Origin: a virus
Virus record (IMG/VR): IMGVR_UViG_3300018421_005763
Coordinates: 1-22,635 of that record
Direction: 5' to 3' (one strand)
Length of the DNA: 22,635 nucleotides
In this document: one piece after another, positions 485 to 13,296 of the stretch
Layout: each line of letters begins with the position of its first letter
Position numbering within the stretch: position 1 is the first letter of the stretch
The notes under the pieces: generated by a model
Told to the model about the DNA's origin: nothing
What the model saw: only the letters and a program-made list of their open reading frames with translations
Databases searched by the model: none
Translations under genes and position numbers: made by a program

Positions 485-526
485 AGTATATAGGGTGCGG
501 AGGCCATCCACAACCTCCGCACCCTA
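485..526 (-). promoter_or_regulatory. Inverted-repeat promoter driving the ncRNA at 365-478
   Basis: Minus strand: TAGGGTGCGGAGG, then TTGTGG, 17 nt, TATACT (490-485). The last 13 nt of the spacer (plus 491-503) are the exact complement of the arm before the -35 (plus 514-526). Read on the plus strand, the same 13-bp hairpin is followed by CTTTTT, so it can also terminate rightward transcription from 225-359. Confidence 0.8.
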
Positions 527-531
527 CTTTT

Positions 532-693
532 TCAGGCGGCTTCCGAATCCCAGCCGCACTCCCAGCACTCCCAGCAGGCGTAGCCCTTGACTCGGTGGAA
601 GAAGAGGTATCCGTCCTCACACTTCGGACAGTCAGGAGCGTCCTCTTCGGTGTTGGTGGTTTTCCATGTATCGTATGATGGGTTCATGTTCAT
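532..693 (-). CDS. 53-aa zinc-ribbon microprotein
   Basis: Starts MNMNPSYDTWKTTNTEE. CPKC at residues 22-25 and CWEC-WEC near 40-46 give two Cys pairs about 15 residues apart, the layout of a small zinc ribbon. ATG 693 sits 7 nt after the -10 TACACT, so it is probably leaderless; a second ATG lies two codons on. The stop is immediately followed by the inverted-repeat promoter at 485-526. Function unknown; such ribbons often bind nucleic acid or protein. Confidence 0.75.
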   Translation of the reverse strand: MNMNPSYDTWKTTNTEEDAPDCPKCEDGYLFFHRVKGYACWECWECGWDSEAA

Positions 694-700
694 GTCTATG

Positions 701-742
701 AGTGTACCCTGCCCGAGAGGCTATGCCAACCTCTCAGGCAGG
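701..742 (-). promoter_or_regulatory. Inverted-repeat promoter of the 53-aa zinc protein
   Basis: Minus strand: CCTGCCTGAGAGG, TTGGCA (729-724), 17 nt, TACACT (706-701). The arms at plus 707-719 and 730-742 pair with one mismatch. Confidence 0.8.
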
Positions 743-748
743 ATTTTC

Positions 749-1048
749 TCAGGGACGGAAAAGATGCCCGCCGATGGACCGGTAGCCCTCAGTCTCCATG
801 TCAATAGCGATGAGGTCTACGTCGACGTACATGCGGAGCCAGTCATCATGTCCACAATGCTCGTCTACGACCTCACAAGCGTAGTCTCGGACGCTAGCCT
901 CTCCGACGTAATGCTCGTCTAGGTGGCCCTCGTCCACCTCGTCTGCGGACAGACCCGTGAACTCCATGAGGGCGACGATAACCTCGCCGTCGACTCCACA
1001 GTCGCTAGCGAGGTCGTAGATGGTTTCTTCTTCTGTTTTGGTTCTCAT
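749..1048 (-). CDS. ArdA-like antirestriction protein (C-terminal-domain size)
   Basis: Ninety-nine residues from the leaderless ATG at 1048 (7 nt after TAGAAT). The order HYVGEASVRDYACEVVDEH, then WLRMYVDVDLIAIDMETEGY, then a closing GGHLFRP matches the last domain of ArdA proteins (Y-x-G-x(4)-D/E, YIDY-x-A-x-D, GHVFR end). Known ArdA are acidic B-DNA mimics of about 160-180 aa that inhibit type I restriction enzymes. This protein is acidic but roughly half that length, so it may be a minimal ArdA or a derived mimic. Family call made from memory of the motif pattern. Confidence 0.6.
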   Translation of the reverse strand: MRTKTEEETIYDLASDCGVDGEVIVALMEFTGLSADEVDEGHLDEHYVGEASVRDYACEVVDEHCGHDDWLRMYVDVDLIAIDMETEGYRSIGGHLFRP

Positions 1049-1055
1049 GGGTGAG

Positions 1056-1084
1056 ATTCTAGTGGCGGTTTTTCGCAGAACCAA
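1056..1084 (-). promoter_or_regulatory. Promoter of the ArdA-like gene (divergent pair)
   Basis: Minus strand TTGGTT (1084-1079), 17-nt spacer, TAGAAT (1061-1056), then 7 nt to ATG 1048. CCGAGG precedes the -35. Confidence 0.78.
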
Positions 1085-1108
1085 CCTCGGAAAAAAGAAA
1101 ATCCGAGG

Positions 1109-1137
1109 TTGTGTATCGGGGTCGACGCTGGTACACT
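1109..1137 (+). promoter_or_regulatory. Promoter of the gene at 1145 (divergent pair)
   Basis: TTGTGT (1109-1114), 17-nt spacer, TACACT (1132-1137), then 7 nt to ATG 1145. The two back-to-back -35 elements are flanked by CCTCGG (1085-1090) and CCGAGG around an A-rich centre, forming a shared inverted repeat. Confidence 0.8.
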
Positions 1138-1144
1138 TAGAGCC

Positions 1145-1339
1145 ATGAGAACACCGAAAGAGGTACAGACCCTAGTGAGGGGGTACGTTTCGGCACGCCG
1201 AGGCCATCAGGCATACAGCCGGATGTCACGGCGGGACGCATACACCCTCGCTCTGCTGGCCGATGTCATCACCGAACGTGAGTTCGGGGCGGCACGGGAG
1301 GCTCTCGCATCCAACGGTCACTGGTACCGGCGGGTGTGA
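1145..1339 (+). CDS. Small basic protein, unknown function
   Basis: Sixty-four residues, starting MRTPKEVQTLVRGYVSAR and ending GHWYRRV. ATG 1145 is leaderless (7 nt after the -10). Arg-rich with predicted helices (DAYTLALLADVITEREFGAA). Divergent from the ArdA-like gene, with which it shares one promoter region. No family recognised. A copy of the 25-bp ATGGTGTACCTA element follows about 50 nt after the stop. Confidence 0.7.
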   Translation: MRTPKEVQTLVRGYVSARRGHQAYSRMSRRDAYTLALLADVITEREFGAAREALASNGHWYRRV

Positions 1340-1390
1340 GGCCCGACAGCCCCGCTGCCGCGAAGGGAAAAACCCACCAAAATAGACAGC

Positions 1391-1416
1391 CCTAAAACAC
1401 CCCTATGGTGTACCTA
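1391..1416 (+). repeat. 25-bp element, copy 1
   Basis: CCTAAAACACCCC followed by TATGGTGTACCTA. Lies between the 3' end of the gene at 1145-1339 and the leftward RNA unit. Read on the minus strand, ACACC-ATAG-GGGTGT-TTTA is a plausible small terminator. A GCTCC/GGAGC hairpin with TTTT follows on the plus strand. Confidence 0.75.
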
Positions 1417-1637
1417 GCAGCTCCGTAGGGGAGCAGTTTTACTACATGCTCAGGTAGGGAGTTTAGTATCACACCACCAAGACCTTGCCTTGCCTTGATG
1501 GCGGCTCATAGTGAGTAGTTTAGCGACTTGCTCAGGTCGTCCTCTGACACAACGCCACGGGGGTACAGAGGACCAACCAGTCCCGTGGCTCCTACAGATT
1601 CCATATCGATAACGACGCTGTAGGGTTTCGCCGGTAA
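1396..1637 (-). ncRNA. Candidate structured ncRNA with an H-type pseudoknot
   Basis: The inverted-repeat promoter at 1642-1670 fires leftward into about 240 nt with no convincing gene. Two perfect 8-bp stems interleave: GTCCTCTG (1539-1546) with CAGAGGAC (1566-1573), and GCCACGGG (1554-1561) with CCCGTGGC (1582-1589), which is an H-type pseudoknot. Further helices pair 1591-1597 with 1618-1624 (7 bp) and 1473-1481 with 1494-1502 (9 bp with wobbles). The end may be the ACACC/GGGTGT-TTTA hairpin in the 25-bp element. A 32-codon frame from ATG 1602 without a ribosome-binding site is the alternative. No known RNA family recognised. Confidence 0.6.
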
Positions 1638-1641
1638 GGTA

Positions 1642-1679
1642 AGTATAGCGGAGAGGCTGGACAGAACCAACCCCTCCGC
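1642..1679 (-). promoter_or_regulatory. Inverted-repeat promoter of the pseudoknot RNA
   Basis: Minus strand: GCGGAGGGG, TTGGTT (1670-1665), 17 nt, TATACT (1647-1642). The right arm CCTCTCCGC pairs imperfectly with the left arm. It lies directly after the stop of the gene at 1689-2093. Confidence 0.8.
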
Positions 1680-1688
1680 CAACTTTTC

Positions 1689-2093
1689 TTAGACCATCTC
1701 AGAGACTACGAACTCCTCGTAGGCCTCAGTCATAGCCTGTACGACGTGCTGGATAGCAACGTACTGACCAGCAGAGACGATTTTCGCTATCTCCATCTCA
1801 CCGATGGAAACAAAGCCCTCTTGGATAGCCTCATCGCAGTAGGAGCGACGACTAATGTCGTCCGCCAACCACTGGAAAAGGTCGGTGTAGTAGATATCGA
1901 TAAGGCTGTCGACAGTCTCGTCGGTATCGAACCCCTCAACCAGACTATCCCAGACAGCCCCACAGACTCGCCAACGCCAGTCGTTGGGCGGCTCGCCGTC
2001 GTGGGCCTGCCTAACGTAGTCGATCATGCCCTCGGGGGCATCCTCGCAGAGCAGGGTTTTGTTGTTGTCTTTTCTCGTGATGAAGTATCTCAT
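1689..2093 (-). CDS. 134-aa protein, unknown function
   Basis: Begins MRYFITRKDNNKTLLCEDA at ATG 2093, 7 nt after the -10 TATCGT, so leaderless; longer in-frame starts lie upstream of the promoter and are excluded. Acidic and probably helical, with DWRWRVCGAVWDSLVEGF and a C-terminal helix ending VVSEMV. No domain recognised. Divergent partner of the transcript starting near 2188, and followed directly by the promoter of the pseudoknot RNA. Confidence 0.75.
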   Translation of the reverse strand: MRYFITRKDNNKTLLCEDAPEGMIDYVRQAHDGEPPNDWRWRVCGAVWDSLVEGFDTDETVDSLIDIYYTDLFQWLADDISRRSYCDEAIQEGFVSIGEMEIAKIVSAGQYVAIQHVVQAMTEAYEEFVVSEMV

Positions 2094-2100
2094 GAGGTAA

Positions 2101-2129
2101 ACGATACCGGCAGAAACGACGAAACACAA
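2101..2129 (-). promoter_or_regulatory. Promoter of the 134-aa gene (divergent pair)
   Basis: Minus strand TTGTGT (2129-2124), 17 nt, TATCGT (2106-2101), then 7 nt to ATG 2093. Confidence 0.75.
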
Positions 2130-2152
2130 CCTCGGGGGAAAATATTCTCAGG

Positions 2153-2181
2153 TTGTGTTTGGTGAGAGCCTCCGGTATACT
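2153..2181 (+). promoter_or_regulatory. Plus promoter without a clear gene (divergent pair)
   Basis: GAGG-like CAGG then TTGTGT (2153-2158), 17 nt, TATACT (2176-2181). Mirror of the promoter at 2101-2129 around GGAAAATATTCTC. Confidence 0.78.
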
Positions 2182-2187
2182 GTGAGC

Positions 2188-2262
2188 ATACAGGGAAAGC
2201 TGCGGGAGAAGAGGGTGGAACCGTCCCGCAAAAACAAAGAAAGAGAGGGGTTTCCCCCTCCC
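2188..2262 (+). ncRNA. Candidate small RNA of about 75 nt
   Basis: The promoter at 2153-2181 predicts a transcript from about 2188, but no ATG occurs before the GGGG/CCCC hairpin at 2245-2260. A GTG at 2182 overlaps the promoter and its frame runs through the hairpin. GCGGGA (2202-2207) pairs with TCCCGC (2224-2229). A small RNA is the simplest reading; a peptide with a non-standard start cannot be excluded. Confidence 0.42.
2243..2262. terminator. Bidirectional terminator hairpin
   Basis: GAGGGG-tt-CCCCCTC-type stem. On the minus strand it is followed by TCTTTCTTTGTTTTT, so it ends the three-gene leftward operon from 2681; on the plus strand it can end the small RNA. Confidence 0.65.
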
Positions 2263-2266
2263 TCCC

Positions 2267-2344
2267 TTAGTCTCTACGCCAGAGGGCCCACTCAAAGAAG
2301 GCCACCGTGGCGAGAGCGATGGTTACCATGATGGCGGTAATCAC
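2267..2344 (-). CDS. Tiny single-span membrane peptide (25 aa)
   Basis: GTG start 2344 overlaps the TGA of the zinc gene (GTGA), with GAGGAG just upstream. The peptide is VITAIMVTIALATVAFFEWA then LWRRD: one hydrophobic span of about 19 residues with a basic C-terminal end, so it should insert as a single helix. An internal ATG at 2329 would give 20 residues. Last gene of the operon 2681-2267, ending at a terminator. Role unknown. Confidence 0.6.
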   Translation of the reverse strand: MITAIMVTIALATVAFFEWALWRRD

Positions 2345-2451
2345 TGCTCCTCGCAATCGTGGCCGTAGTGATACTCTTCTGCTTGCTCTTCATCAAGCAT
2401 GTCGAATACCCTGTGGCACTCGGGACAGCGGATTAGGCATCCGAGACTCAT
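2341..2451 (-). CDS. 36-aa zinc microprotein
   Basis: ATG 2451 overlaps the TGA of the upstream gene (ATGA). The product starts MSLGCLIRCPECHRVFDMLD and ends with YHYGHDCEEQ. C-P-E-C plus a late H-x-C could bind one zinc ion; CPECHRVF resembles the first knuckle of zinc ribbons. Middle gene of a three-gene operon with the 77-aa protein before it and the membrane peptide after it. No function known. Confidence 0.65.
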   Translation of the reverse strand: MSLGCLIRCPECHRVFDMLDEEQAEEYHYGHDCEEQ

Positions 2452-2681
2452 GAGTATGCTCCTTGTCTGTAATAGGCGGACAGAGCGGGCTGTGCCTGTT
2501 CGTTCCACCAAGTAGCGAGGGGAGAACCCTCGGTGATGATAATACCATCCATCCGCAACGCCTGCGCCATAGCATCAAGAGTGTCTGCGATGCGATGGAG
2601 GTCTGTCTGTGACATTGTGACCAAGAATGTAGTCTCTTCTTCACAGTAGTAGCGAATAATGTCTGCTTGTGTCATGTTCAT
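2448..2681 (-). CDS. 77-aa protein, unknown function
   Basis: Starts MNMTQADIIRYYCEEETTFL at the leaderless ATG 2681, 6 nt after the -10; a second ATG is two codons in. Helical middle (LHRIADTLDAMAQALRMDG), followed by ATWWNEQAQPALSAYYRQ. First gene of the operon to 2267. The frame is open further upstream, but that part crosses the promoter and its inverted repeat. Confidence 0.72.
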   Translation of the reverse strand: MNMTQADIIRYYCEEETTFLVTMSQTDLHRIADTLDAMAQALRMDGIIITEGSPLATWWNEQAQPALSAYYRQGAYS

Positions 2682-2687
2682 GGGGCC

Positions 2688-2726
2688 AGTATAGCGGAGG
2701 GGCCATCCCAAGACAACCCCTCCGCT
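2688..2726 (-). promoter_or_regulatory. Inverted-repeat promoter of the 2681-2267 operon
   Basis: Minus strand: AGCGGAGGGG, TTGTCT (2716-2711), 17 nt ending CCCCTCCGC, TATACT (2693-2688). The 9-10 bp arms pair perfectly. Confidence 0.82.
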
Positions 2727-2733
2727 AAGATTT

Positions 2734-3024
2734 TCAGGAACGGCCCGTGACGTACCGCTCCCTAATCGACCAAGAGTCGTGATGGTTGCCACGCTGTGGG
2801 CGACGGGAGACCTTAGTCTGCCACCGACGCTGTGTCACAGTGTCGTAGGTCAGACGGTCCCTGCGCCGAGCGAGGGCCATGCCGATAACCTCGGCGTAGG
2901 TCTCATCCCCCATGCTCTTAGCGAGCCGGAGAGTGAGGGCGGTGCGGGCGGCACTAGCGGGAATGTCAATCGACCATGCCCCGTCAATCATGCTGGCCCA
3001 TGCTTGCTTCTCTGTGTTGTTCAT
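2734..3024 (-). CDS. 96-aa basic protein, unknown function
   Basis: ATG 3024 lies 6 nt after TACACT, so leaderless, and gives MNNTEKQAWASMIDGAWSID. The second half is strongly basic (MALARRRDRLTYDTVTQRRW, then KVSRRPQRGNHH), which would suit nucleic-acid binding, though no motif is recognised. Divergent from the gene at 3119. The stop is followed directly by the inverted-repeat promoter at 2688-2726. Confidence 0.72.
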   Translation of the reverse strand: MNNTEKQAWASMIDGAWSIDIPASAARTALTLRLAKSMGDETYAEVIGMALARRRDRLTYDTVTQRRWQTKVSRRPQRGNHHDSWSIRERYVTGRS

Positions 3025-3030
3025 GCCATC

Positions 3031-3058
3031 AGTGTATCGGCCCCTCCCCAAAAACCAA
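3031..3058 (-). promoter_or_regulatory. Promoter of the 96-aa gene (divergent pair)
   Basis: Minus strand TTGGTT (3058-3053), 16 nt, TACACT (3036-3031). Confidence 0.75.
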
Positions 3059-3082
3059 CCTCGGAAAAAAGAAAATCGTAGG

Positions 3083-3111
3083 TTGTGTTTCTCCCCAATA
3101 GCCGATATAGT
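3083..3111 (+). promoter_or_regulatory. Promoter of the gene at 3119 (divergent pair)
   Basis: TTGTGT (3083-3088), 17 nt, TATAGT (3106-3111), 7 nt to ATG. The centre AACCTCGGAAAAAAGAAAAT is almost identical to that of the pair at 1056-1137. Confidence 0.78.
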
Positions 3112-3118
3112 TGTATTC

Positions 3119-3397
3119 ATGAACAGCACAGAGAGAAAAGTACCAACAGCGTTCAACCATATGCCGAACTACATGGACCCCCGTGTTCTCAATGCCGTAC
3201 AGGCTAGCGAATACATCGGATGGTTCTGCGAGGTAACGTGGCAGGACGACGACCGCTGGGCGCACGTCGATGGTACCGTAATGTCCGTTGAGGACGGACG
3301 TATGTCCATTGAGGCGTACGAATACGGTAGCTTTGAGGTGGAACTCCGCATGGTTTCGGACGTAACTCCGCTTGTCTGCGAGTTCACGCCCGAGTGA
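3119..3397 (+). CDS. 92-aa protein, unknown function
   Basis: The leaderless ATG 3119 gives MNSTERKVPTAFNHMPNYMD. The core EYIGWFCEVTWQDDDRWAHVDG followed by alternating strands (RMSIEAYEYGSFEVELRMV) suggests a small beta-barrel fold, by inference only. A strong terminator follows at once, then copy 2 of the 25-bp element. Divergent partner of the basic protein at 2734-3024. Confidence 0.75.
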   Translation: MNSTERKVPTAFNHMPNYMDPRVLNAVQASEYIGWFCEVTWQDDDRWAHVDGTVMSVEDGRMSIEAYEYGSFEVELRMVSDVTPLVCEFTPE

Positions 3398-3421
3398 GTG
3401 AGAGGGGGGAAACCCCCTCAC
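3398..3421 (+). terminator. Intrinsic terminator
   Basis: GTGAGaGGGGG / CCCCCTCAC with an AAA-type loop, directly after the stop of 3119-3397, followed by ACCCATTTTT. Confidence 0.7.
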
Positions 3422-3475
3422 ACCCATTTTTGCGGGGCGGTTCGACCCTGCGGGTAGGGCACCCTAGGTAGTGAC

Positions 3476-3500
3476 CCTAAAGCGTCCTATGGTGTACCTA
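3476..3500 (+). repeat. 25-bp element, copy 2
   Basis: CCTAAAGCGTCC then TATGGTGTACCTA. On the minus strand it supplies the last codons (V-G-T-P-stop) of the small ORF at 3487-3636. Confidence 0.75.
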
Positions 3501-3636
3501 CGGGGTAGAGCATATCAACGTCAAGGACTATATCCAATCCTTCTTTGAGCTCCTCCGATATCCAGTACCACGCACACTGCGCATCACAGGACCGCGTTGT
3601 GTATGTAGCGAGAATCATACGGGTTATATTCCTCAT
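3487..3636 (-). CDS. 49-aa small protein, unknown function
   Basis: MRNITRMILATYTTRSCDAQ, then CAWYWISEELKEGLDIVLDV, ending MLYPVGTP. Its stop lies inside copy 2 of the 25-bp element. ATG 3636 sits 8 nt after TATAGC, so it may be leaderless, but no good -35 is visible. Composition is protein-like, and a Cys pair (C-x3-C) is present. No family recognised. It fills an otherwise empty gap between converging and diverging units. Confidence 0.5.
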   Translation of the reverse strand: MRNITRMILATYTTRSCDAQCAWYWISEELKEGLDIVLDVDMLYPVGTP

Positions 3637-3704
3637 ACGATTATGCTATATTCGGTTTATTCCCTCGTTTTTACTTTAGTTGCTAGAATATGCTCCGTCA
3701 CTCG

Positions 3705-3733
3705 TTGACAAGTCTAGCAATATACGATAGGAA
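3705..3733 (+). promoter_or_regulatory. Promoter of the gene pair 3742-4006
   Basis: Consensus TTGACA (3705-3710), 17 nt, TAGGAA (3728-3733). Unlike the others here it lacks the GAGGTTG context, so this unit may be regulated differently. Confidence 0.5.
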
Positions 3734-3741
3734 TAACGACC

Positions 3742-3885
3742 ATGACTACCGACAGTAAAGAGCACAGCAAGATGATCATCTTCACTTGCGACGTTTGTAA
3801 CGTCAAGATTGAGACCTTCTCAAGTGCTGCTGTATGGTGCCAGCAAGGTCACAAGATGAACCCTAAGGAGTCCCGCCGTGGCTAA
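3742..3885 (+). CDS. 47-aa zinc-ribbon protein
   Basis: MTTDSKEHSKMIIFTCDVCN, then VKIETFSSAAVWCQQGHKM and a basic tail ESRRG. CDVC plus WC-x3-H gives a CxxC...C-x3-H zinc site. ATG 3742 lies 8 nt after TAGGAA. There is no convincing Shine-Dalgarno, so it may be leaderless or short-leadered. Its stop overlaps the GTG start of the next gene, so the two are co-translated. Codon use is AT-richer than its neighbours. Confidence 0.72.
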   Translation: MTTDSKEHSKMIIFTCDVCNVKIETFSSAAVWCQQGHKMNPKESRRG

Positions 3886-4006
3886 GTTGACCCAGAGCTA
3901 CACCTCTGCTTCCAAGAAGCGTCCCGGAGTTCACGCCAAGAGCAAGAACTCCAACCAACCTAACTCTAAAGTTTACAAGAAGAAGTATAGAGGGCAGGGA
4001 CGCTAA
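3878..4006 (+). CDS. 42-aa basic conserved phage protein
   Basis: GTG 3878 with AAGGAG 7 nt upstream, overlapping the previous stop. Product VAKLTQSYTSASKKRPGVHA, then KSKNS, ending KKKYRGQGR. The RPGVHAKSKxS...YKKxYRGQGR pattern is familiar from small proteins of many tailed phages, for which I know no proven role; the charge suggests nucleic-acid binding. It is paired with the zinc ribbon at 3742. Recognition is from memory of the pattern. Confidence 0.72.
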   Translation: MAKLTQSYTSASKKRPGVHAKSKNSNQPNSKVYKKKYRGQGR

Positions 4007-4015
4007 TCCCTACCC
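3992..4015. terminator. Hairpin at a convergent junction
   Basis: GGGcAGGGA / TCCCTaCCC around the converging stops at 4003-4006, followed on the plus strand by a T-rich stretch (CCTTCTTTTG). Confidence 0.5.
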
Positions 4016-4179
4016 TCAACCTTCTTTTGCTTCCTTGAGTCATTCAACTTTGACAACCAAGCACGCTCCTTCCGCTCTTCTGCGTAGAGAGCTTCGTGCT
4101 TCACCTTCTGGTCACGGATGTGACCCGACGAAGTGTTGTTGTTGTATCGCAATGACTCCTCCTGTTCTGTTGGGTACAT
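4003..4179 (-). CDS. 58-aa charged protein, unknown function
   Basis: ATG 4179 gives MYPTEQEESLRYNNNTSSGH, then a long charged helix ending SRKQKKVEGRD. Only the C-terminal 60 residues of the longer open frame look like protein, and the upstream gene in another frame ends at 4190, so the short start is chosen. No Shine-Dalgarno is seen, so it may depend on coupling to the upstream gene. Stop codons overlap those of the convergent gene at 3878-4006. Confidence 0.5.
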   Translation of the reverse strand: MYPTEQEESLRYNNNTSSGHIRDQKVKHEALYAEERKERAWLSKLNDSRKQKKVEGRD

Positions 4180-4189
4180 CACTATTCTA

Positions 4190-4447
4190 TCACCACTCTC
4201 GCCACGTTCCACCCCATCTCGGGGAAGTTGAGCGAAGATAACAGGCCCACATGGGATGCTTCTCTTCCAGCATCTCGGGGAGCACAATGTGTACGGCGTA
4301 GTCCAGTCCACGAACGAACCGACACGGCGAGCCGAAGAAGAACCTGCTCTTGGGAGCCTGCTCGTAGGCGATGGCGTGGGATGCGCACCTAGCGAGGCAC
4401 ACATCCCACGGGTCGATACCGATGCTGTCAGCAAGTCGCCTCACCAT
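4190..4447 (-). CDS. 85-aa protein, unknown function
   Basis: ATG 4447 starts inside the last codons of the 47-aa gene upstream, with GAGGAGG about 10 nt before it. It reads MVRRLADSIGIDPWDVCLAR, then CASHAIAYEQAPKSRFFFGS, and ends RWGGTWREW. Mixed, foldable composition with four Cys. No family recognised. Middle gene of the operon 4584-4003. Confidence 0.62.
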   Translation of the reverse strand: MVRRLADSIGIDPWDVCLARCASHAIAYEQAPKSRFFFGSPCRFVRGLDYAVHIVLPEMLEEKHPMWACYLRSTSPRWGGTWREW

Positions 4448-4584: not shown

Positions 4585-4591
4585 GTGTACC

Positions 4592-4619
4592 AGTATAGCC
4601 TTCCTGCTGTAAAAAGCAA
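4592..4619 (-). promoter_or_regulatory. Promoter of the 4584-4003 operon
   Basis: Minus strand AGG-TTGCTT (4619-4614), 16 nt, TATACT (4597-4592), 7 nt to ATG 4584. It has no long inverted repeat of its own; a separate terminator stands just upstream. Confidence 0.75.
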
Positions 4620-4628
4620 CCTGAAAAA

Positions 4629-4668
4629 CAGAAAATCCCCACCCTCGTCAGAGAGCGGGGATTTTCTG
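4629..4668 (-). terminator. Intrinsic terminator of the gene at 4679-4912
   Basis: Perfect 12-bp stem CAGAAAATCCCC / GGGGATTTTCTG, followed on the minus strand by TTTTTC. It is 11 nt after the stop at 4679. Confidence 0.8.
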
Positions 4669-4678
4669 CCATGGAAAA

Positions 4679-4912: not shown

Positions 4913-4941
4913 GTCTTTCTCCTTCTGTCTGTGTGGTAGAG

Positions 4942-4983
4942 AGTGTATCACCCCGCGAGGCCCACCACAACCTCGCGGGGTGA
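4942..4983 (-). promoter_or_regulatory. Inverted-repeat promoter, perfect 13-bp arms
   Basis: Minus strand: TCACCCCGCGAGG, TTGTGG (4970-4965), 17 nt ending CCTCGCGGGGTGA, TACACT (4947-4942). The clearest example of the architecture. Confidence 0.88.
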
Positions 4984-4990
4984 TTGTTGC

Positions 4991-5310: not shown

Positions 5311-5339
5311 AGTATACAGGAAGCTGTCCTGTACGCCAA
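5311..5339 (-). promoter_or_regulatory. Promoter of the 98-aa gene
   Basis: Minus strand GAGG-TTGGCG (5339-5334), 17 nt, TATACT (5316-5311). Here the inverted repeat (TACAGGA / TCCTGTA) lies wholly inside the spacer. Confidence 0.8.
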
Positions 5340-5349
5340 CCTCACCGAA

Positions 5350-5636
5350 CAGAAATCCTTGTCGTGAGGCTCCGCATGGAGTCCGTCGACTCACTTCACC
5401 AATCCAGCATTCCGGACTGCTGGTGACTCAACCGACGGCAGAGCATTTCGCAAGAGGAGGGCGGGATCGAATAGCCAGAGCCCATGTCGCACGGTCTATG
5501 TCAGTCCTAGGCCTGACACCGTGGAGTGATGAGAGTAACTATGAGAGCCTTATCGTTGGAGTGATGTTACCCGAGGGTCTGTTGTCCAAGTGAAGCCGAA
5601 GCCCCACGACAAGGATTTCTATTCAGTTGTCAATGT
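5350..5636 (-). ncRNA. Candidate large structured ncRNA (about 280 nt)
   Basis: A gene-free 330-nt gap transcribed from the promoter at 5647-5675. Its ends pair: AGAAATCCTTGTCGTG (5350-5365) is the exact complement of CACGACAAGGATTTCT (5606-5621), and one mismatch further in another 4 bp pair (GGCT/AGCC), giving a closing helix of about 20 bp. Inside are CCGTCG/CGACGG enclosing a CCAGCA/TGCTGG hairpin (5391-5437 region), and CACGG-TGTCAG/CTGACA-CCGTG near 5490-5525. No ATG follows the promoter. I see no hallmarks of tmRNA, RNase P, SRP or 6S RNA. The family is unknown to me. Confidence 0.68.
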
Positions 5637-5646
5637 TCTGTGGTAG

Positions 5647-5675
5647 AGTGTACCGGCTCGGAAGCCGATCACCAA
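5647..5675 (-). promoter_or_regulatory. Promoter of the large structured RNA
   Basis: Minus strand GAGG-TTGGTG (5675-5670), 17 nt, TACACT (5652-5647). The spacer contains CGGCTTCCGAGCCG, a 5-bp inverted repeat. The TGA of the 16-codon ORF overlaps the -35. Confidence 0.78.
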
Positions 5676-6520: not shown

Positions 6521-6558
6521 AGTGTACTAGGGAGGCCGCTGAATAGCAACCTCCCTAG
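6521..6558 (-). promoter_or_regulatory. Inverted-repeat promoter of the 116-aa gene
   Basis: Minus strand: CTAGGGAGG, TTGCTA (6549-6544), 17 nt ending CCTCCCTAG, TACACT (6526-6521). Perfect 9-bp arms. Confidence 0.85.
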
Positions 6559-6960: not shown

Positions 6961-6989
6961 AGTGTACCAGCAATTTGCCGGTACACCAA
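6961..6989 (-). promoter_or_regulatory. Promoter of the TTG-start gene
   Basis: Minus strand TTGGTG (6989-6984), 17 nt, TACACT (6966-6961). GTACCgGCAAATTGCtGGTAC is a 21-nt inverted repeat spanning the spacer. Confidence 0.78.
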
Positions 6990-7595: not shown

Positions 7596-7637
7596 AGTTT
7601 ATCCCTCGGGTCAGACTAATCCAACCCGAGGGATAAA
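7596..7637 (-). promoter_or_regulatory. Inverted-repeat promoter with 14-bp arms
   Basis: Minus strand: TTTATCCCTCGGGT, TTGGAT (7624-7619; the arm's last T is shared with the -35), 17 nt, TAAACT (7601-7596). The right arm ACCCGAGGGATAAA extends into the -10 box. Confidence 0.82.
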
Positions 7638-8925: not shown

Positions 8926-8954
8926 AGTGTATCAGCAGTTTCTGCTAATCACAA
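8926..8954 (-). promoter_or_regulatory. Promoter of the 8893-7644 operon
   Basis: Minus strand TTGTGA (8954-8949), 17 nt, TACACT (8931-8926). The inverted repeat TTAGCAG-aaa-CTGCTGA lies inside the spacer. The -35 starts 2 nt after the stop of the gene at 8957. Confidence 0.8.
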
Positions 8955-8956
8955 CA

Positions 8957-9166: not shown

Positions 9167-9167
9167 G

Positions 9168-9485: not shown

Positions 9486-9486
9486 G

Positions 9487-9648
9487 TCAGTTGTCCTCCT
9501 GCCATTCTCCCTCCAAGGGAAGCCGTACGGTGTTCTTCTCGTCGCCTGTGAATCGGGTAGCCGATTCTTTGTCGGCATAGCCAAAGTCGTTTGACCAGTA
9601 GAGGGTTTCGGTAAAAAACCCGTCCTTGGATTTGATGAGCCATGTCAT
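9487..9648 (-). CDS. 53-aa protein, unknown function
   Basis: ATG 9648 (second of two overlapping CATs) in GGAGGACAACTGACATG. Starts MTWLIKSKDGFFTETLYWSN and ends PLEGEWQEDN. Beta-rich and compact. Its last codons E-D-N-stop are written by the start cassette of the next gene. Second gene of the operon. No family recognised. Confidence 0.72.
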   Translation of the reverse strand: MTWLIKSKDGFFTETLYWSNDFGYADKESATRFTGDEKNTVRLPLEGEWQEDN

Positions 9649-9649
9649 G

Positions 9650-10075
9650 TCAGTTGTCCTCCGTAATAATGTCAGTAATACGCTTGCCCCAATAGACAGC
9701 GATCTCATGGCCCTCATCATCCATAAGCTCCGCGTCGATATACTCAGTTACCTCGGCGGTGTCGATGACAACTACGTCGTCGTCAAGGCCAAAGTAGGTG
9801 TCAGTACCAAGATGGTAAAGAAGTTTGGCTGTGTTCTTCTTGATAAACCGGACCACCACGCTTCCGTCGGTGTCCGCCTCATCGGCGCACTTGCCGCAGA
9901 CGGGAGCGACCTCAATAGTGTTAGGCAACACGGGCGAGTCATCTCCCGATACGTCGATTCTTACACCGACAGTCTCTTTCGTGATGATGCCGTTGATGTG
10001 GCAGATGGAACACAAGCCACCGGTCCTCCACCTAGCCCACTCGTAGTCGCCTGAAAACTCAAATGTGTTTCTCAT
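9650..10075 (-). CDS. 141-aa zinc-site protein, unknown function
   Basis: ATG 10075 with AAGGAGGACAACTGACATG. Starts MRNTFEFSGDYEWARWRTGG. CSIC (about 22-25) and CGKC (about 60-63) bracket a beta-rich insert, so one treble-clef or ribbon-type zinc site is likely; HNH-like His residues are not evident apart from one after CSIC. The second half is acidic and beta-rich. First gene of the four-gene operon 10075-8957. It ends in E-D-N-stop. Confidence 0.75.
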   Translation of the reverse strand: MRNTFEFSGDYEWARWRTGGLCSICHINGIITKETVGVRIDVSGDDSPVLPNTIEVAPVCGKCADEADTDGSVVVRFIKKNTAKLLYHLGTDTYFGLDDDVVVIDTAEVTEYIDAELMDDEGHEIAVYWGKRITDIITEDN

Positions 10076-10108
10076 GTCAGTTGTCCTCCTTGTTGTTGTT
10101 GTGTTGTC

Positions 10109-10146
10109 AGTATACTGGCGGGGTCAGTCGAAACCAACCCCGCCAG
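10109..10146 (-). promoter_or_regulatory. Inverted-repeat promoter of the 10075-8957 operon
   Basis: Minus strand: CTGGCGGGGT, TTGGTT (10137-10132; the arm's last T is shared with the -35), 17 nt ending ACCCCGCCAG, TATACT (10114-10109). Ten-bp arms. Confidence 0.85.
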
Positions 10147-10156
10147 CAACATTCAT

Positions 10157-10219
10157 CTACTTTTTCATGAACAGCAGGATTGCCATTGTAAACAGTAGGT
10201 AGAAGAATAGGAAATCCAT
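10157..10219 (-). CDS. Tiny membrane peptide (20 aa)
   Basis: ATG 10219 starts 1 nt after the TAA of the 132-aa gene. The whole product is MDFLFFYLLFTMAILLFMKK: a single hydrophobic helix with a Lys-Lys end, as expected for a membrane micropeptide. It needs coupling to the upstream gene because no clear Shine-Dalgarno is present. Compare the peptides at 2267-2344 and 19508-19591. Confidence 0.6.
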   Translation of the reverse strand: MDFLFFYLLFTMAILLFMKK

Positions 10220-10220
10220 C

Positions 10221-10619
10221 TTAGTAGATAATCATTTCCGGCTCGGCAGGAACGTACTCATCCCACCACGCAGTCTTTGAGAAGTAGGTGATGGTCGGGT
10301 GACCATCACGCTGACCACGGAATTCAATAGGCTGAAACGACTCGTTCCAGTCAATAAGGACAGGCTCCCAGTTGGAGTCTGGAAGTTCCGTTCCGATCAT
10401 GATACCAAACCCAATCTCACGGCTACTGCCAAGCTCAGTCAGGGTATCGAAGATGATTCGTGTGGCGTAAGCGTAGTCGGTGATTCGACCAGCCATATCA
10501 CAGCGAGTAATGGCTTCCTTTACCGTGTGTGGCAACAGGTCACCATGCCAATGCGTGTAGAACCAGATTGGCTCCTCCGATGACGGGTGGGTGATTCGGA
10601 TGCTTGCTCTTTCTCCCAT
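10221..10619 (-). CDS. 132-aa conserved-type protein, unknown function
   Basis: ATG 10619 in AAGGAGAAAGACATGG. Starts MGERASIRITHPSSEEPIWF. WFYTHWHGDLLPHTVKEAIT, TDYAYATRIIFDTLTE and EIGFGIMIG follow the order of a hypothetical family (YTHWGG...LP...AL.R...D..Y..RIIF) found in phages and bacteria, as I remember it. No catalytic motif is visible. Operon with the 20-aa membrane peptide. Confidence 0.78.
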   Translation of the reverse strand: MGERASIRITHPSSEEPIWFYTHWHGDLLPHTVKEAITRCDMAGRITDYAYATRIIFDTLTELGSSREIGFGIMIGTELPDSNWEPVLIDWNESFQPIEFRGQRDGHPTITYFSKTAWWDEYVPAEPEMIIY

Positions 10620-10649
10620 GTCTTTCTCCTTTCGTTTGGGGTGATGTGA

Positions 10650-10691
10650 AGTGTATCGGGTGGGTAGGCCAACACCAACCTACCCACCCGA
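10650..10691 (-). promoter_or_regulatory. Inverted-repeat promoter with 13-bp arms
   Basis: Minus strand: TCGGGTGGGTAGG, TTGGTG (10678-10673), 17 nt ending CCTACCCACCCGA, TACACT (10655-10650). Perfect arms. Confidence 0.87.
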
Positions 10692-10696
10692 AAATA

Positions 10697-11389
10697 TCAG
10701 GCTAACCTAGCCAAGTTGTGGAACTTGTCCATGTAGTCCCATTTCCAGTCATCGAACATCTCGAAAGCATCGTCGCTATCCCAGTCGATTTCAGGCATGG
10801 TGTCGTGCATCGCTCCATCGTGATGCTCCACCACATTCTCGCCGTTCCGGTAACGGAGCATCCCAGCGAAGCCCATACCCTCCTCAGAATAGACAATGCT
10901 GAAAGTGAGCGACGGGAAAAGTTCGCTAACCCCTGCGATGAGCGCATCGGGTGGGGACCACGCAGAGTCACCACGGATTTCCGTGAGAGTCTCCGTGTGA
11001 GCCTGAACGAAGAACTCGGGAGCCCATTTGGTTCCCCAGTTGTCCAACCGCCAGTTCCACCAGCCCGAGTAGCCATACTCGGCCAAGAGCCGTTGAGTGA
11101 CCTCGTACTCCTTGCGCTTGTCCTCGCAGAGTTTGTCGTGCCACTCCTGCGTAATCTCGCCGTTGGCGAGCAGGTTGGCCCAGTTGGGATGAGGGTCCGG
11201 AGAGTCAATCGACGTAATGCCAGACACCTCCTCCAAAGCCTGAGGCATGGGGACAGAGAGGGTCAGGTCAAGACGAGTACCGTCTTGATAGTCGCTGTCC
11301 TCCCCAACGACGGTATGCTCGGCAACGAGGCGGTTACGCTCGTCGCTCGGACCCGTGATGTAGATTGTATTGTCACACCAGTTCGGCAT
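10697..11389 (-). CDS. DUF1281/YubB-like (api92-type) protein
   Basis: 230 residues from ATG 11389 (AAAGGAGAACAACATG). The opening MPNWCDNTIYITGPSDE, the middle YGYSGWWNWRLDNWGTKWAP, then SAWSPPDALIAGVSELFPSL and EEGMGFAGMLRYRNG match the DUF1281/ferredoxin-like (YubB) family in order: MPNWC-x-N, YG-x-x-x-WYxW-x-x-x-NWGTKW, (T/S)AWSPP, FP, E-x-G-x-x-FxG. Such proteins are common on phages and plasmids, function unproven. The acidic C-terminal third is an addition. Divergent from 11548. Confidence 0.85.
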   Translation of the reverse strand: MPNWCDNTIYITGPSDERNRLVAEHTVVGEDSDYQDGTRLDLTLSVPMPQALEEVSGITSIDSPDPHPNWANLLANGEITQEWHDKLCEDKRKEYEVTQRLLAEYGYSGWWNWRLDNWGTKWAPEFFVQAHTETLTEIRGDSAWSPPDALIAGVSELFPSLTFSIVYSEEGMGFAGMLRYRNGENVVEHHDGAMHDTMPEIDWDSDDAFEMFDDWKWDYMDKFHNLARLA

Positions 11390-11422
11390 GTTGTTCTCCT
11401 TTCGTGGTAGTTGTCGGCATCT

Positions 11423-11451
11423 ACTGTATCGGCTGTTTGCGACTATGACAA
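11423..11451 (-). promoter_or_regulatory. Promoter of the DUF1281-like gene (divergent pair)
   Basis: Minus strand AGG-TTGTCA (11451-11446), 17 nt, TACAGT (11428-11423). Confidence 0.75.
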
Positions 11452-11475
11452 CCTAGAAGAAAACATTTTCTGAGG

Positions 11476-11504
11476 TTGTGTTTGCTGCTAGAGGCCGGTA
11501 GTAT
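11476..11504 (+). promoter_or_regulatory. Promoter of the pair 11548-11981 (divergent pair)
   Basis: GAGG-TTGTGT (11476-11481), 17 nt, TAGTAT (11499-11504). The centre AGAAGAAAACATTTTCT is a near-palindrome. The leader contains GTAC-cacgag-GTAC. Confidence 0.75.
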
Positions 11505-11547
11505 TGAGGCCGTACCACGAGGTACAATAAAACAACTAGGAGATACT

Positions 11548-11727
11548 ATGTCAAAGCGCAAAGTAAAGACAGACCTAAACATCGACTTAGACAAGGCCAT
11601 GCGACGCATCGCTTGGGAGCGTTCTGTGTCGGAGATGCGAGACGGGCGCAAGAACCGTGCCGTAACCTTCACCGACCGCCGCAAGGAGGCGAACAAGAAG
11701 GCCTGCCGAAAGAAGGTGGACTGGTGA
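11548..11727 (+). CDS. 59-aa basic protein, possibly DNA-binding
   Basis: ATG 11548 with CTAGGAG about 6 nt upstream. Starts MSKRKVKTDLNIDLDKAMRR, then IAWERSVSEMRDGRKNRAVT and a basic end KKACRKKVDW. About a third of residues are K or R. The KVKTDLNIDLDKAMRRIAW stretch could be a strand plus helix, as in ribbon-helix-helix proteins, but this is weak. GTGA overlap with the next gene. Confidence 0.7.
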   Translation: MSKRKVKTDLNIDLDKAMRRIAWERSVSEMRDGRKNRAVTFTDRRKEANKKACRKKVDW

Positions 11728-11981
11728 CAGAGAGACACGACGCTGAACCTCTGCCCATCCTAGACCGTTATGAGCTGGTCAAGACTGCCATCGGCATGAT
11801 TGACGACGGGATTGACGTTCTCGTCTCAGAGGCTCTTGAGGACGGCCTAGAGGCTACTCCAGAGTTCCTAGAGGGCATGGAGGATATGCGGGCAGATGCT
11901 TACATCGCAATGCTCTACAGCATGGTCAACAGCCACACCGAGGGTGTGGAGATGCTGGCCCTGCTCAAGGCTGATTCGTAG
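11724..11981 (+). CDS. 85-aa acidic helical protein, unknown function
   Basis: GTG 11724 overlaps the previous stop. Starts VTERHDAEPLPILDRYELVK and is all-helical and acidic (AIGMIDDGIDVLVSEALEDG, DMRADAYIAMLYSMVNSHTE). Co-translated with a basic partner, so the two may form an opposite-charge pair; this is inference. An AGGAGGC-like GGAGG lies about 35 nt upstream only. Terminator directly after. Confidence 0.72.
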   Translation: MTERHDAEPLPILDRYELVKTAIGMIDDGIDVLVSEALEDGLEATPEFLEGMEDMRADAYIAMLYSMVNSHTEGVEMLALLKADS

Positions 11982-11987
11982 GTGGAG

Positions 11988-12008
11988 GGCCGGGGCTACC
12001 CGGCCTTT
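11988..12008 (+). terminator. Intrinsic terminator
   Basis: GGCCGGG-GCTA-CCCGGCC followed by TTTC, 7 nt after the stop at 11981. Confidence 0.75.
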
Positions 12009-12055
12009 CATCACGTCCAAAAATTCACGTAGGGCGGTATAGTCCCGCCACTCAC

Positions 12056-12080
12056 TCTAAAGCACTCAATGGTGTACCTA
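12056..12080 (+). repeat. 25-bp element, copy 4
   Basis: TCTAAAGCACTC then AATGGTGTACCTA. Its last bases form the left arm of the terminator at 12074-12114. Confidence 0.78.
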
Positions 12081-12114
12081 CCGGACTGGTTTCCCAATCC
12101 GGTAGGTACTTTTT
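12074..12114 (+). terminator. Terminator fused to the 25-bp element
   Basis: Perfect 12-bp stem GTACCTACCGGA / TCCGGTAGGTAC followed by TTTTT. It overlaps copy 4 of the repeat and ends 1 nt before the stop of the minus gene at 12116. Confidence 0.82.
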
Positions 12115-12115
12115 G

Positions 12116-12466
12116 CTACGCCGTAGCGAGTCTGGCTTGCCACCTCTGGAACTCACCGACGATCTCGAAATCACGATAAACGTCGGTAGGGTCATCGCCC
12201 CAAGACATTCCACCGGTGAGAGCGTACTGAGTGATGCCTCCGTCGGGGGACCACCAACCGATCTCTCGGCTGTCACCGTAGACGACCTGAAAGGCCTCAT
12301 CGATGCGTTCGACAATCTCCTGCTCGGTCATCTCCTCAAAGATGTACAGCTCGGTGTCGTCCGAGAAGTGCTGAGCCTCCCCGTCGTTGAGCTCCCCGAG
12401 GATCTCCTGCCAGTATTTGAGTGGCTGATTCACCTCAACAATCTCGTAGATGAAATCTGCTCCCAT
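12116..12466 (-). CDS. 116-aa conserved-type protein, unknown function
   Basis: ATG 12466 in AAAGGAGAAAGACATG. Starts MGADFIYEIVEVNQPLKYWQ; acidic helices (MTEQEIVERIDEAFQVVYGD) lead to SREIGWWSPDGGITQYALTG and GMSWGDDPTDVYRDFEIVGE. The LTGGMSWGDDPT segment is the most conserved-looking part, and I recall similar segments in phage hypothetical proteins. No catalytic residues can be assigned. Confidence 0.77.
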   Translation of the reverse strand: MGADFIYEIVEVNQPLKYWQEILGELNDGEAQHFSDDTELYIFEEMTEQEIVERIDEAFQVVYGDSREIGWWSPDGGITQYALTGGMSWGDDPTDVYRDFEIVGEFQRWQARLATA

Positions 12467-12498
12467 GTCTTTCTCCTTTCGTTGTGGTTTGAGATGTC

Positions 12499-12527
12499 AG
12501 TATATCGTCCCCTTTCGGGAAAAGCTA
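12499..12527 (-). promoter_or_regulatory. Atypical promoter of the 116-aa gene
   Basis: TATACT (12504-12499) is clear, but 17 nt upstream only TAGCTT is found. The usual AGGTTGAGA motif is present 28 nt upstream of the -10, inside the end of the preceding gene. The spacer holds TCCC-gaaa-GGGGA. Confidence 0.6.
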
Positions 12528-12863
12528 CCCTATCTCAACCTTTTTGTTGATAAGTCTCGCGTAGTCCGCGTTATGGACTGGACGCAGTGTATCACACTCC
12601 ACGAAGGTGCTGTGAACCCGTGGGTTATAGGTCACCTTGGTTGGGGTGTCGGGAATCTCGTCCGCCAGCGTGCCCATGACAAAGGCATGGACATTCTTCT
12701 TGCCCTCTCTGAGGACGCGCTGTCGGCCAGCCCCGCTGACCTTGAAGGTTGCGTCCCTGAGGAGCACTTCGTCCGCGTAGCCAGTCACCAGCCATCGTCC
12801 ATCGACGCGCTGCTGGATGCTGAACGTGTGTTTGTGTAGGTTGTAGTAAGCTCGTACTTGCAT
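12525..12863 (-). CDS. 112-aa conserved phage-type protein, unknown function
   Basis: ATG 12863 with GAAGGAGGAG upstream; longer in-frame starts fall in the promoter. Starts MQVRAYYNLHKHTFSIQQRV; then VTGYADEVLLRDATFKVSGA and GRQRVLREGKKNVHAFVMGT. The YYNLHKxxFSVQ...H/YAxxVxLxxxxFxVxxxGRQRVLRExxKNVHAFVxG order is a pattern I associate with many phage hypothetical proteins. The GRQRVLRExxKN stretch is rich in Arg/Lys and may bind nucleic acid (inference). Confidence 0.8.
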   Translation of the reverse strand: MQVRAYYNLHKHTFSIQQRVDGRWLVTGYADEVLLRDATFKVSGAGRQRVLREGKKNVHAFVMGTLADEIPDTPTKVTYNPRVHSTFVECDTLRPVHNADYARLINKKVEIG

Positions 12864-12885
12864 GTCTCCTCCTTCGTTAGATACA

Positions 12886-12925
12886 AGTGTACCGAGGCCA
12901 TCTATGAAAGACAACCTCGGTACAC
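12886..12925 (-). promoter_or_regulatory. Inverted-repeat promoter with 11-bp arms
   Basis: Minus strand: GTGTACCGAGG, TTGTCT (12914-12909), 17 nt ending CCTCGG, TACACT (12891-12886). The right arm CCTCGGTACAC includes the -10. Confidence 0.85.
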
Positions 12926-12935
12926 AAATTTTGGC

Positions 12936-13226
12936 TTAGTTTGAGAAGCCCTGTACGGACTCTAGCAAGTCCCACCGAGCGTCACTCCAGAGAGCTGAGT
13001 CACCGCGATAGCGGTAGATATCGTCTCCGAACTTGACGTACTTGGGCAGCTTCTTGTTCTTGTAGGCCTTTAGCAGCGGGGCAGCGTACTTGTCGTACAG
13101 CCTGTTGTTGCGCTTGTAGCCCTCGTCGGTAAGCGGGTGAGGCTTGTATAGAAACTTCAACCGTCCGACAGTCCCGAGGTCGGGATGCTCCTCCTCCTCG
13201 GTGATTCCGTAGATGTAAACTCCCAT
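12936..13226 (-). CDS. 96-aa protein, unknown function
   Basis: ATG 13226 with AAAGGAGACACTT upstream. Starts MGVYIYGITEEEEHPDLGTV; a basic middle (KAYKNKKLPKYVKFGDDIYR) and an aromatic end (SALWSDARWDLLESVQGFSN). Mixed alpha/beta by eye. No family recognised. Single-gene unit between two inverted-repeat promoters. Confidence 0.73.
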   Translation of the reverse strand: MGVYIYGITEEEEHPDLGTVGRLKFLYKPHPLTDEGYKRNNRLYDKYAAPLLKAYKNKKLPKYVKFGDDIYRYRGDSALWSDARWDLLESVQGFSN

Positions 13227-13254
13227 AAGTGTCTCCTTTCGTTGTTGTGATGAC

Positions 13255-13296
13255 AGCCTATCGTGAGGGGAGAGGCCTCACAACCTCTCCCCTCAC
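13255..13296 (-). promoter_or_regulatory. Inverted-repeat promoter with 13-bp arms
   Basis: Minus strand: GTGAGGGGAGAGG, TTGTGA (13283-13278), 17 nt, TAGGCT (13260-13255). Read on the plus strand the hairpin is followed by TTTTTCTC, so it could also stop antisense transcription into 13303-14196. Confidence 0.82.

What the first reader, a model, noticed from the sequence alone, without database searches (positions are those of the whole stretch)
485..13296. Promoters built inside covarying inverted repeats
About eleven minus-strand promoters (485, 701, 1642, 2688, 4942, 6521, 7596, 10109, 10650, 12886, 13255) share one design: a 9-14 nt arm, then the -35 TTGnnn, 17 nt whose end is the complementary arm, then the -10. 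The arm sequence differs at each site but still pairs, which is covariation within one genome. The arms lie upstream of the transcription start, so the gene's own mRNA cannot contain the hairpin; only read-through RNA from the preceding gene can. Each site may therefore be a combined terminator and promoter, insulating every gene. Alternatives are cruciform formation or a regulator that reads shape rather than sequence. It resembles in spirit the start-associated repeats of cluster K mycobacteriophages but differs in placement.
Basis: partly seen in the sequence, partly recalled or inferred. Interest (0 to 1): 0.88.

Follow-up and report, generated by a model that had tools for sequence, protein, structure and literature searches.

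The report
Phage promoters fused to transcription terminators
In this uncultured actinobacterial virus, almost every gene that follows another on the same strand is switched on by a promoter sitting inside a hairpin that probably stops RNA synthesis from the gene before it, so one roughly 45-base element both ends one message and starts the next.

Summary
All eleven minus-strand sites exist at the stated coordinates: an arm ends flush against a -35 (TTGnnn), the second arm ends at the -10 (TAYACT) after a 17-nt spacer, and the arms pair although their sequence differs from site to site. Swapping arms between sites destroys pairing (100,000 permutations, none as good), and shuffled DNA gives no such sites. 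Two syntenic IMG/VR relatives have the same design, and at orthologous junctions whole arms changed with compensation. Context identifies the likely job. Same-strand junctions carry the hairpin (25 of 33); back-to-back promoters with the same -35 motif do not (1 of 26, probably misclassified), and their arms pair no better than swapped ones. Five of the eight same-strand exceptions have a separate strong hairpin between stop codon and promoter. Best explanation: a fused terminator-promoter, with the -35 in the loop and the -10 where a U-tract would be. Termination itself is inferred: there is no U-tract beyond the -10, and the hairpins sit close to the stop codon. It differs from cluster K ESAS elements, whose arms are conserved and contain the -35. 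New variant of a known kind; a promising system for testing terminator-to-promoter polymerase recycling.

The parts
485..526 (-). Fused element: arm1 514-526, -35 508-513, arm2 491-503, -10 485-490; downstream region has no long ORF
   Evidence: dG -30.3
701..744 (-). Fused element: -35 724-729, -10 701-706, stem 15 bp with G-U; gene 532-693 predicted leaderless
   Evidence: dG -30.9
1642..1681 (-). Fused element: arm1 1671-1681, -35 1665-1670, -10 1642-1647; no long ORF downstream
   Evidence: ortholog M7252 covaries
2688..2727 (-). Fused element: arm1 2717-2727, -35 2711-2716, arm2 2692-2702, -10 2688-2693
   Evidence: ortholog M8243 covaries
4942..4984 (-). Fused element: arm1 4971-4984, -35 4965-4970, arm2 4947-4960, -10 4942-4947
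   Evidence: ortholog M9952 has six compensatory pairs around an identical loop
6521..6558 (-). Fused element: arm1 6550-6558, -35 6544-6549, -10 6521-6526
7596..7637 (-). Fused element: arm1 7624-7637, -35 7619-7624, arm2 7598-7611, -10 (TAAACT) 7596-7601
10109..10146 (-). Fused element: arm1 10137-10146, -35 10132-10137, arm2 10115-10124, -10 10109-10114
10650..10691 (-). Fused element: arm1 10679-10691, -35 10673-10678, arm2 10656-10668, -10 10650-10655
   Evidence: ortholog M14231 covaries
12886..12925 (-). Fused element: arm1 12915-12925, -35 12909-12914, arm2 12887-12897, -10 12886-12891
13255..13296 (-). Fused element: arm1 13284-13296, -35 13278-13283, arm2 13263-13275, -10 (TAGGCT) 13255-13260
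   Evidence: relative M17412/Q6295 has a different, partly shifted stem
5647..5675 (-). Promoter with a short hairpin inside the 17-nt spacer
   Evidence: B=7, dG -16.7
6961..6989 (-). Promoter with a short hairpin inside the spacer, including one G-U pair
   Evidence: B=7
8926..8954 (-). Promoter with a short hairpin inside the spacer
   Evidence: B=8
4592..4668 (-). Exception: promoter (-10 4592-4597) preceded by a separate hairpin with T-run (4629-4668)
   Evidence: dG of stop to -35 region -33.5
1056..1137 (.). Example of a divergent promoter pair (1056- and 1132+): same GAGG-TTG motif, no fused hairpin
3031..3111 (.). Divergent promoter pair (3031- and 3106+), no fused hairpin
14230..14320 (.). 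Divergent promoter pair (14230- and 14315+), no fused hairpin

Best explanation
Each site is a fused transcription terminator and promoter at a boundary between two transcription units on the same strand. RNA polymerase leaving the upstream gene passes the stop codon and, a few bases later, transcribes arm 1, the -35 (which becomes the loop) and arm 2. The nascent hairpin forms in the RNA exit channel when polymerase stands on or just past the -10, and stops or stalls it there. The same DNA is a SigA-type promoter (UP-like A-tract, GAGG-TTGnnn, 17 bp, TAYACT) that starts the next mRNA downstream of the hairpin, often leaderless. The -35/-10 sequences and spacing are fixed by the promoter and pairing by the hairpin, so only the outer arm is free to drift, and it drifts in compensated pairs. 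Shown: promoter-like motifs, pairing, covariation, the same-strand-only rule, conserved placement after the stop codon. Inferred: that the hairpin terminates transcription, and that the promoters are active.
For: Own-arm vs swapped-arm folding -26.6 vs -13.2 kcal/mol, 0/100,000 permutations; all 31 tandem promoters unselected for hairpin also 0/100,000; divergent promoters own = swapped (p 0.46). Hairpin dG <= -15 at 25/33 tandem and 1/26 divergent GG-TTG promoters, Fisher p 1e-8, significant in window and relative M separately. Of the 8 tandem exceptions, W4592, M9592, M5387 and M1028 have a separate strong hairpin (dG -26 to -45) with a T-run between stop codon and -35; M3811 has a strong hairpin (-36) whose 3' arm abuts the -35; W6961 has a spacer hairpin and M6364 a weak 7-bp stem; W18820 lies in another gene block. 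Orthologous junctions: W4942/M9952 6 compensatory and 0 broken pairs; W2688/M8243 4 and 0; W1642/M7252 3 and 0; W10650/M14231 5 and 1. Ten equal-geometry sites: 7 of 9 pairs change on both sides, covariation score 0.664 vs 0.179 shuffled, 0/500 (sites selected for pairing). Most fused -35s lie 18-26 nt after the upstream stop codon, the stem usually starting 5-11 nt after it.
Against: No U-tract after the hairpin beyond what the -10 supplies: T fraction of the 8 nt starting at the -10 is 0.39 in hairpin promoters and 0.40 in divergent ones; most separate hairpins do have T-runs. U-tract need in mycobacteria is disputed (references in PMC12288462). In E. coli a terminator 5 bp from a stop codon lost most efficiency, attributed to ribosome occlusion (PMC4824070), and these hairpins start at comparable distances. 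Two relatives show uncompensated weakening: M6364 (dG -11.5, ortholog of W701) and M16044 vs Q7427 (two pairs broken). No expression data.
Confidence: 0.73

Rival explanations
1. 3'-end stabiliser or processing site. Polymerase reads through and ends elsewhere; the hairpin protects the upstream mRNA from 3'-5' exonucleases or is cut by an RNase III-type enzyme.
For: Strong GC-rich stems (-18 to -32 kcal/mol) without U-tract near stop codons; predicts the same tandem-only rule and covariation.
Against: Gives no special reason to be flush with the -10, except economy of space; several unfused junctions have terminator-like hairpins with T-runs.
Confidence: 0.12
2. Terminator of antisense transcription. 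Read on the opposite strand the hairpin is followed by a T-tract, so it would stop antisense RNA from entering the upstream gene.
For: Sense-strand A-tract at about -18 to -15 before the -35 gives antisense T-runs after the hairpin, e.g. at 485 and 13255.
Against: The same A-tract is present at hairpin-less divergent promoters (A 0.42 vs 0.44) and is anchored to the -35, so it looks like an UP element; divergent promoters would need antisense blocking at least as much.
Confidence: 0.06
3. Cruciform or DNA shape recognised by a phage regulator that controls these promoters.
For: Inverted repeats overlap -35 and -10; arms vary, so a shape reader rather than a sequence reader would be needed.
Against: Divergent promoters with the same -35 motif lack it and show no arm pairing beyond swapped controls; long loops (about 8-17 nt) do not favour cruciforms (own knowledge); some junctions replace it with an upstream hairpin.
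Confidence: 0.04
4. Chance or motif artefact: the conserved GAGG before TTG finds CCTC in the spacer by chance.
For: GAGG/GGGG is conserved in all promoters of the family.
Against: Outer arm pairs covary; zero in shuffles; hairpin-less promoters with the same motif do not pair.
Confidence: 0.01

Closest known systems
Extended start-associated sequences (ESAS) of cluster K mycobacteriophages (Pope 2011 PMC3203893; Adephagia PMC11373665)
   Same: Repeated intergenic elements with a SigA-like promoter (17-18 bp spacing) inside an inverted repeat, upstream of many small genes of an actinophage
   Different: In Anaya and Pixie, read here, the -35 TTGACA lies in the left arm and the -10 overlaps the right arm; arms are conserved between sites; the element is often followed by a 13-bp SAS; several have a separate strong hairpin upstream. 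Here the -35 is in the loop, the -10 lies at or just outside the stem, outer arms differ at each site and no SAS was seen.
Early-region terminators without poly-U tails of actinophage phiC31 (Ingham 1995, title from the reference list of PMC8355165; content from own knowledge)
   Same: Hairpins without U-tail between early genes of an actinophage, reported as Rho-independent terminators
   Different: A scan of the phiC31 genome for SigA-like promoters fused to hairpins found none.
I-shaped, U-tract-less intrinsic terminators of mycobacteria (discussed in PMC12288462)
   Same: GC-rich hairpin near the stop codon without U-tract
   Different: Not described there as carrying a promoter within the hairpin; their activity is contested.
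Post-termination RNA polymerase retention and secondary initiation (PMC6978322, PMC6978380)
   Same: The authors propose that a sense promoter near a terminator could be served by the terminated polymerase
   Different: Shown on E. coli templates in vitro with separate elements; here the two are fused and repeated.
Hairpin promoters of phage N4 virion RNA polymerase (own knowledge)
   Same: Promoter with inverted repeat
   Different: N4: small hairpin with a short loop recognised by the phage enzyme; here standard -35/-10 and hairpins only at tandem junctions.

Membership tests
SigA/sigma-70 type promoter | -35 (TTGnnn) and -10 (TAnnnT) 16-18 bp apart upstream of genes | tested here: met
   mostly 17 bp; start codon 6-7 or about 22-33 nt after the -10 at most sites with a called gene
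SigA/sigma-70 type promoter | Transcription starts there | not testable with these tools
   No RNA data
Intrinsic terminator | Stable GC-rich RNA hairpin shortly after the stop codon, under pairing selection | tested here: met
Intrinsic terminator | U-tract directly after the hairpin (canonical form) | tested here: not met
   2-4 T in 8, same as promoters without hairpin; so a canonical L-shaped terminator is not claimed
Intrinsic terminator | RNA 3' ends at the site | not testable with these tools
   No RNA data
Cluster K ESAS | 17-bp arms with a conserved consensus between sites | tested here: not met
   Outer arms differ at each site; ESAS arms conserved (PMC3203893)
Cluster K ESAS | Inverted repeat containing a SigA-like promoter | tested here: met
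   Met in general form, but the geometry differs: -35 in the loop here, in the arm in ESAS
Cluster K ESAS | Associated 13-bp SAS at the start codon | tested here: not met
   No GGGATAGGAGCCC-like sequence seen between promoter and start codon on reading the downstream sequences; no dedicated motif scan was run

The most novel reading that the evidence does not exclude
The fusion is a polymerase relay: the hairpin releases the upstream transcript while RNA polymerase stands on or next to the next promoter, so that after binding sigma the same enzyme re-initiates there. A run of single-gene messages could then be made by polymerases handed from gene to gene, with transcription of one unit promoting the next.
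Probability: 0.12. Interest if true: 0.88.

Novelty: new variant of a known kind. Interest (0 to 1): 0.64.

Why it matters
A compact genetic part that ends one transcript and starts the next in about 45 bp, with the -35 in the terminator loop, is a strong case of two overlapping codes under separate constraint, and gives natural replicates (25 hairpin-bearing tandem sites in three phage contigs) with hairpin-free divergent controls. It bears on two open questions: whether actinobacterial polymerase terminates at hairpins without a U-tract, and whether polymerase retained after termination can re-initiate at an adjacent sense promoter. It is also a candidate insulator part for crowded synthetic constructs.

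Tried and rejected
Sequence-specific dimer operator: rejected because outer arms differ at each site and divergent promoters lack the repeat. Cruciform/shape reader and N4-like hairpin promoter: disfavoured by the same control. U-tract in sense: looked for, absent beyond the -10. Named relatives: megablast of the window and tblastn of four window proteins against the phage records gave no relative of the genome, only weak partial protein matches; a scan of genome contigs for relatives of the phrog_645-type protein found none. A wider class in unrelated viruses: fixed-geometry scans of IMG/VR gave some isolated fused sites elsewhere (L117/L180 two sites with different arms, L323 two, L130, L120, L345, L290), but such sites are rare outside this family and the same scan of bacterial and archaeal genomes gives near-background pairing; I make no claim of a universal class. 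L181 has a repeated-arm look-alike (ATAGGG/CCCTAT) that could be an ordinary operator. phiC31: no SigA-like fused sites.
Full report
WHAT THE WINDOW IS. The window is a 22.6-kb uncultured virus record, probably of an actinobacteriophage: a WhiB-family gene, a thioredoxin-domain protein, a deaminase-like protein, a phrog_645-type protein and a glycine-rich, possibly tail-related protein, three tRNAs. No close relative is in the named phage records. Two IMG/VR contigs are syntenic relatives with matching blocks of roughly 66-85% DNA identity: 3300006919_010067 (L001, called Q) and 3300010389_000088 (L003 and overlapping loci, called M, 29.7 kb). W denotes the window.

CHECKING THE OBSERVATION. 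All eleven sites are there. Reading on the minus strand: A-rich tract, arm 1 ending in GAGG or GGGG (TAGG and CGGG at single sites), TTGnnn, a 17-nt spacer whose 3' part is arm 2, then TAYACT (TAAACT and TAGGCT at two sites). Stems are 8-15 bp, dG about -19 to -32 kcal/mol. In 100 Markov-shuffled windows no site of this kind appears; the window has ten by the same strict rule. The strongest test is the swap: arm 1 of one site with the spacer of another keeps composition and the conserved GAGG. Own pairs average -26.6, swapped -13.2 kcal/mol, and none of 100,000 permutations is as good. Taking all 31 tandem promoters of window and M with no selection for hairpins gives -21.3 against -11.5, again 0 of 100,000.

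CONTEXT. Promoters were called by sequence rule and genes by a codon-usage caller. Among promoters with GG-TTG, 25 of 33 tandem ones (upstream gene on the same strand, within 90 nt) have a hairpin of -15 kcal/mol or better, against 1 of 26 divergent ones (Fisher p 1e-8; window alone 11/14 vs 1/12, M alone 12/17 vs 0/10). At divergent promoters own and swapped arms fold alike (p 0.46), although the GAGG-TTG motif and A-tract are the same. The one divergent hit (5647) appears, on reading the sequence, to be a same-strand promoter behind promoter 5727 and carries a short hairpin inside its spacer. So the hairpin is not part of the promoter as such; it accompanies promoters that have a same-strand gene behind them.

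THE EXCEPTIONS. [quoted passage not shown] M3811 has a strong hairpin whose 3' arm ends against the -35; W6961 has a hairpin within the spacer; M6364 has a weak 7-bp stem; W18820 lies in another gene block. A hairpin is therefore present in some form at nearly every early same-strand junction that has a promoter. In the fused cases the -35 mostly starts 18-26 nt after the stop codon, with a few at 32-84 nt, and the stem usually starts 5-11 nt after the stop. Start codons lie either 6-7 nt after the -10 (leaderless mRNA predicted) or about 22-33 nt after it.

COVARIATION IN RELATIVES. At orthologous junctions: W4942 against M9952 keeps the loop TTGTGGTGGG exactly while six stem pairs change on both sides and none breaks; W2688/M8243 4 compensated, 0 broken; W1642/M7252 3 and 0; W10650/M14231 5 and 1. 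W13255/M17412 has a shifted stem, W701/M6364 has lost most of its stem, and Q7427/M16044 (92% identical neighbourhood) shows two broken pairs without compensation. Ten sites of equal geometry: 7 of 9 pairs have changes on both sides, covariation score 0.664 against 0.179 (0 of 500 shuffles), and sliding the partner by one to three columns removes it; these sites were selected for pairing, so the unselected test carries the weight.

MECHANISM. The hairpin lies upstream of the start site, so only RNA from the preceding unit can contain it. A tandem-only, compensated hairpin right after the stop codon is what a terminator looks like. The RNA 3' end would be expected 7-9 nt past the stem base, i.e. 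at about -5 to +1 of the next unit (own knowledge). What is missing is the U-tract: the 8 nt from the start of the -10 hold 2-4 T, as in promoters without hairpins. Whether actinobacterial polymerase needs one is disputed: a review describes U-tract-less terminators as predominant in mycobacteria and cites work for and against (PMC12288462), and phiC31 early terminators are reported to lack the tail (title cited in PMC8355165). Ribosomes at a stop codon close upstream can suppress a terminator in E. coli (PMC4824070), so termination may be partial or depend on translation. I put 0.73 on terminator-promoter fusion, 0.12 on a stabiliser or processing hairpin, 0.06 on an antisense terminator (the antisense T-run follows from the A-tract, which divergent promoters also have), 0.04 on a DNA-shape regulator.

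COMPARISON WITH THE KNOWN. I read them in Anaya and Pixie. There the -35 is part of the left arm and the -10 overlaps the right arm, the arms are conserved between sites, and several ESAS are preceded by a separate strong hairpin. The junction as a whole (hairpin then promoter) is thus alike; the fusion, the -35 in the loop and the free arms are not. Not a member of ESAS.

BEYOND THE FAMILY. Exact-geometry scans of IMG/VR returned the family plus a few isolated contigs with full or nearly full pairing. Two unrelated contigs have two fused sites each with different arms (L180, L323). The same pattern in bacterial and archaeal genomes is close to background. The design therefore seems to arise occasionally elsewhere and to be systematic in this family; this was not tested rigorously because those loci were fetched by part of the pattern.

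VERDICT. Real, non-random, with a well-supported though unproven function; new variant of a known kind. The most novel reading left open is a relay in which the terminated polymerase re-initiates at the promoter it is parked on. The general idea was raised for separate elements in PMC6978322.

Noticed in passing
window 1404, 3488, 6122, 12068, 14672, 14948, 15701, 16216, 16750 (+): Dispersed asymmetric 13-mer WATGGTGTWCCTA, all nine copies on the + strand. Contig 3300010389_000088 has nine copies in one orientation too but mostly as GTGTTCCTA, a lineage-wide change suggesting a co-evolving binding protein (resembles stoperators in kind).
   Followed up: partly
window about 5330-5640 (-): Candidate structured non-coding RNA without ORF behind promoter 5647(-): dG -123, z about -6 against mononucleotide shuffles, CCTCCTC motif; a partner with duplicated motifs in contig 3300010389_000088 at 10830-11170; no Rfam family.
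   Followed up: partly
window 701, 1056, 2101, 2688, 3031 and many sites in the relative: Start codon 6-7 nt after the -10: many genes predicted to have leaderless mRNA.
   Followed up: partly
window 355-484 (-) and 1380-1641 (-): Fused promoters 485 and 1642 fire into regions without long ORFs; possible small RNAs or tiny ORFs.
   Followed up: partly
window about 10157-10217 (-): Possible 20-aa hydrophobic ORF (MDFLFFYLLFTMAILLFMKK) between gene 10221-10619 and the 10109 element; its stop would restore the usual stop-to-hairpin distance (read).
   Followed up: no
L181 (IMGVR 3300034684_000096), about nine sites: Unrelated phage with a repeated-sequence version of the layout, ATAGGG-TTGAC...CCCTAT-TATACT, at many promoters.
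   Followed up: no
L180 8282 and 9082; L323: Unrelated phages each with two fused sites with different arms flush with the -10; L180 keeps a loop of TTGACA followed by a TTGGGC core.
   Followed up: partly
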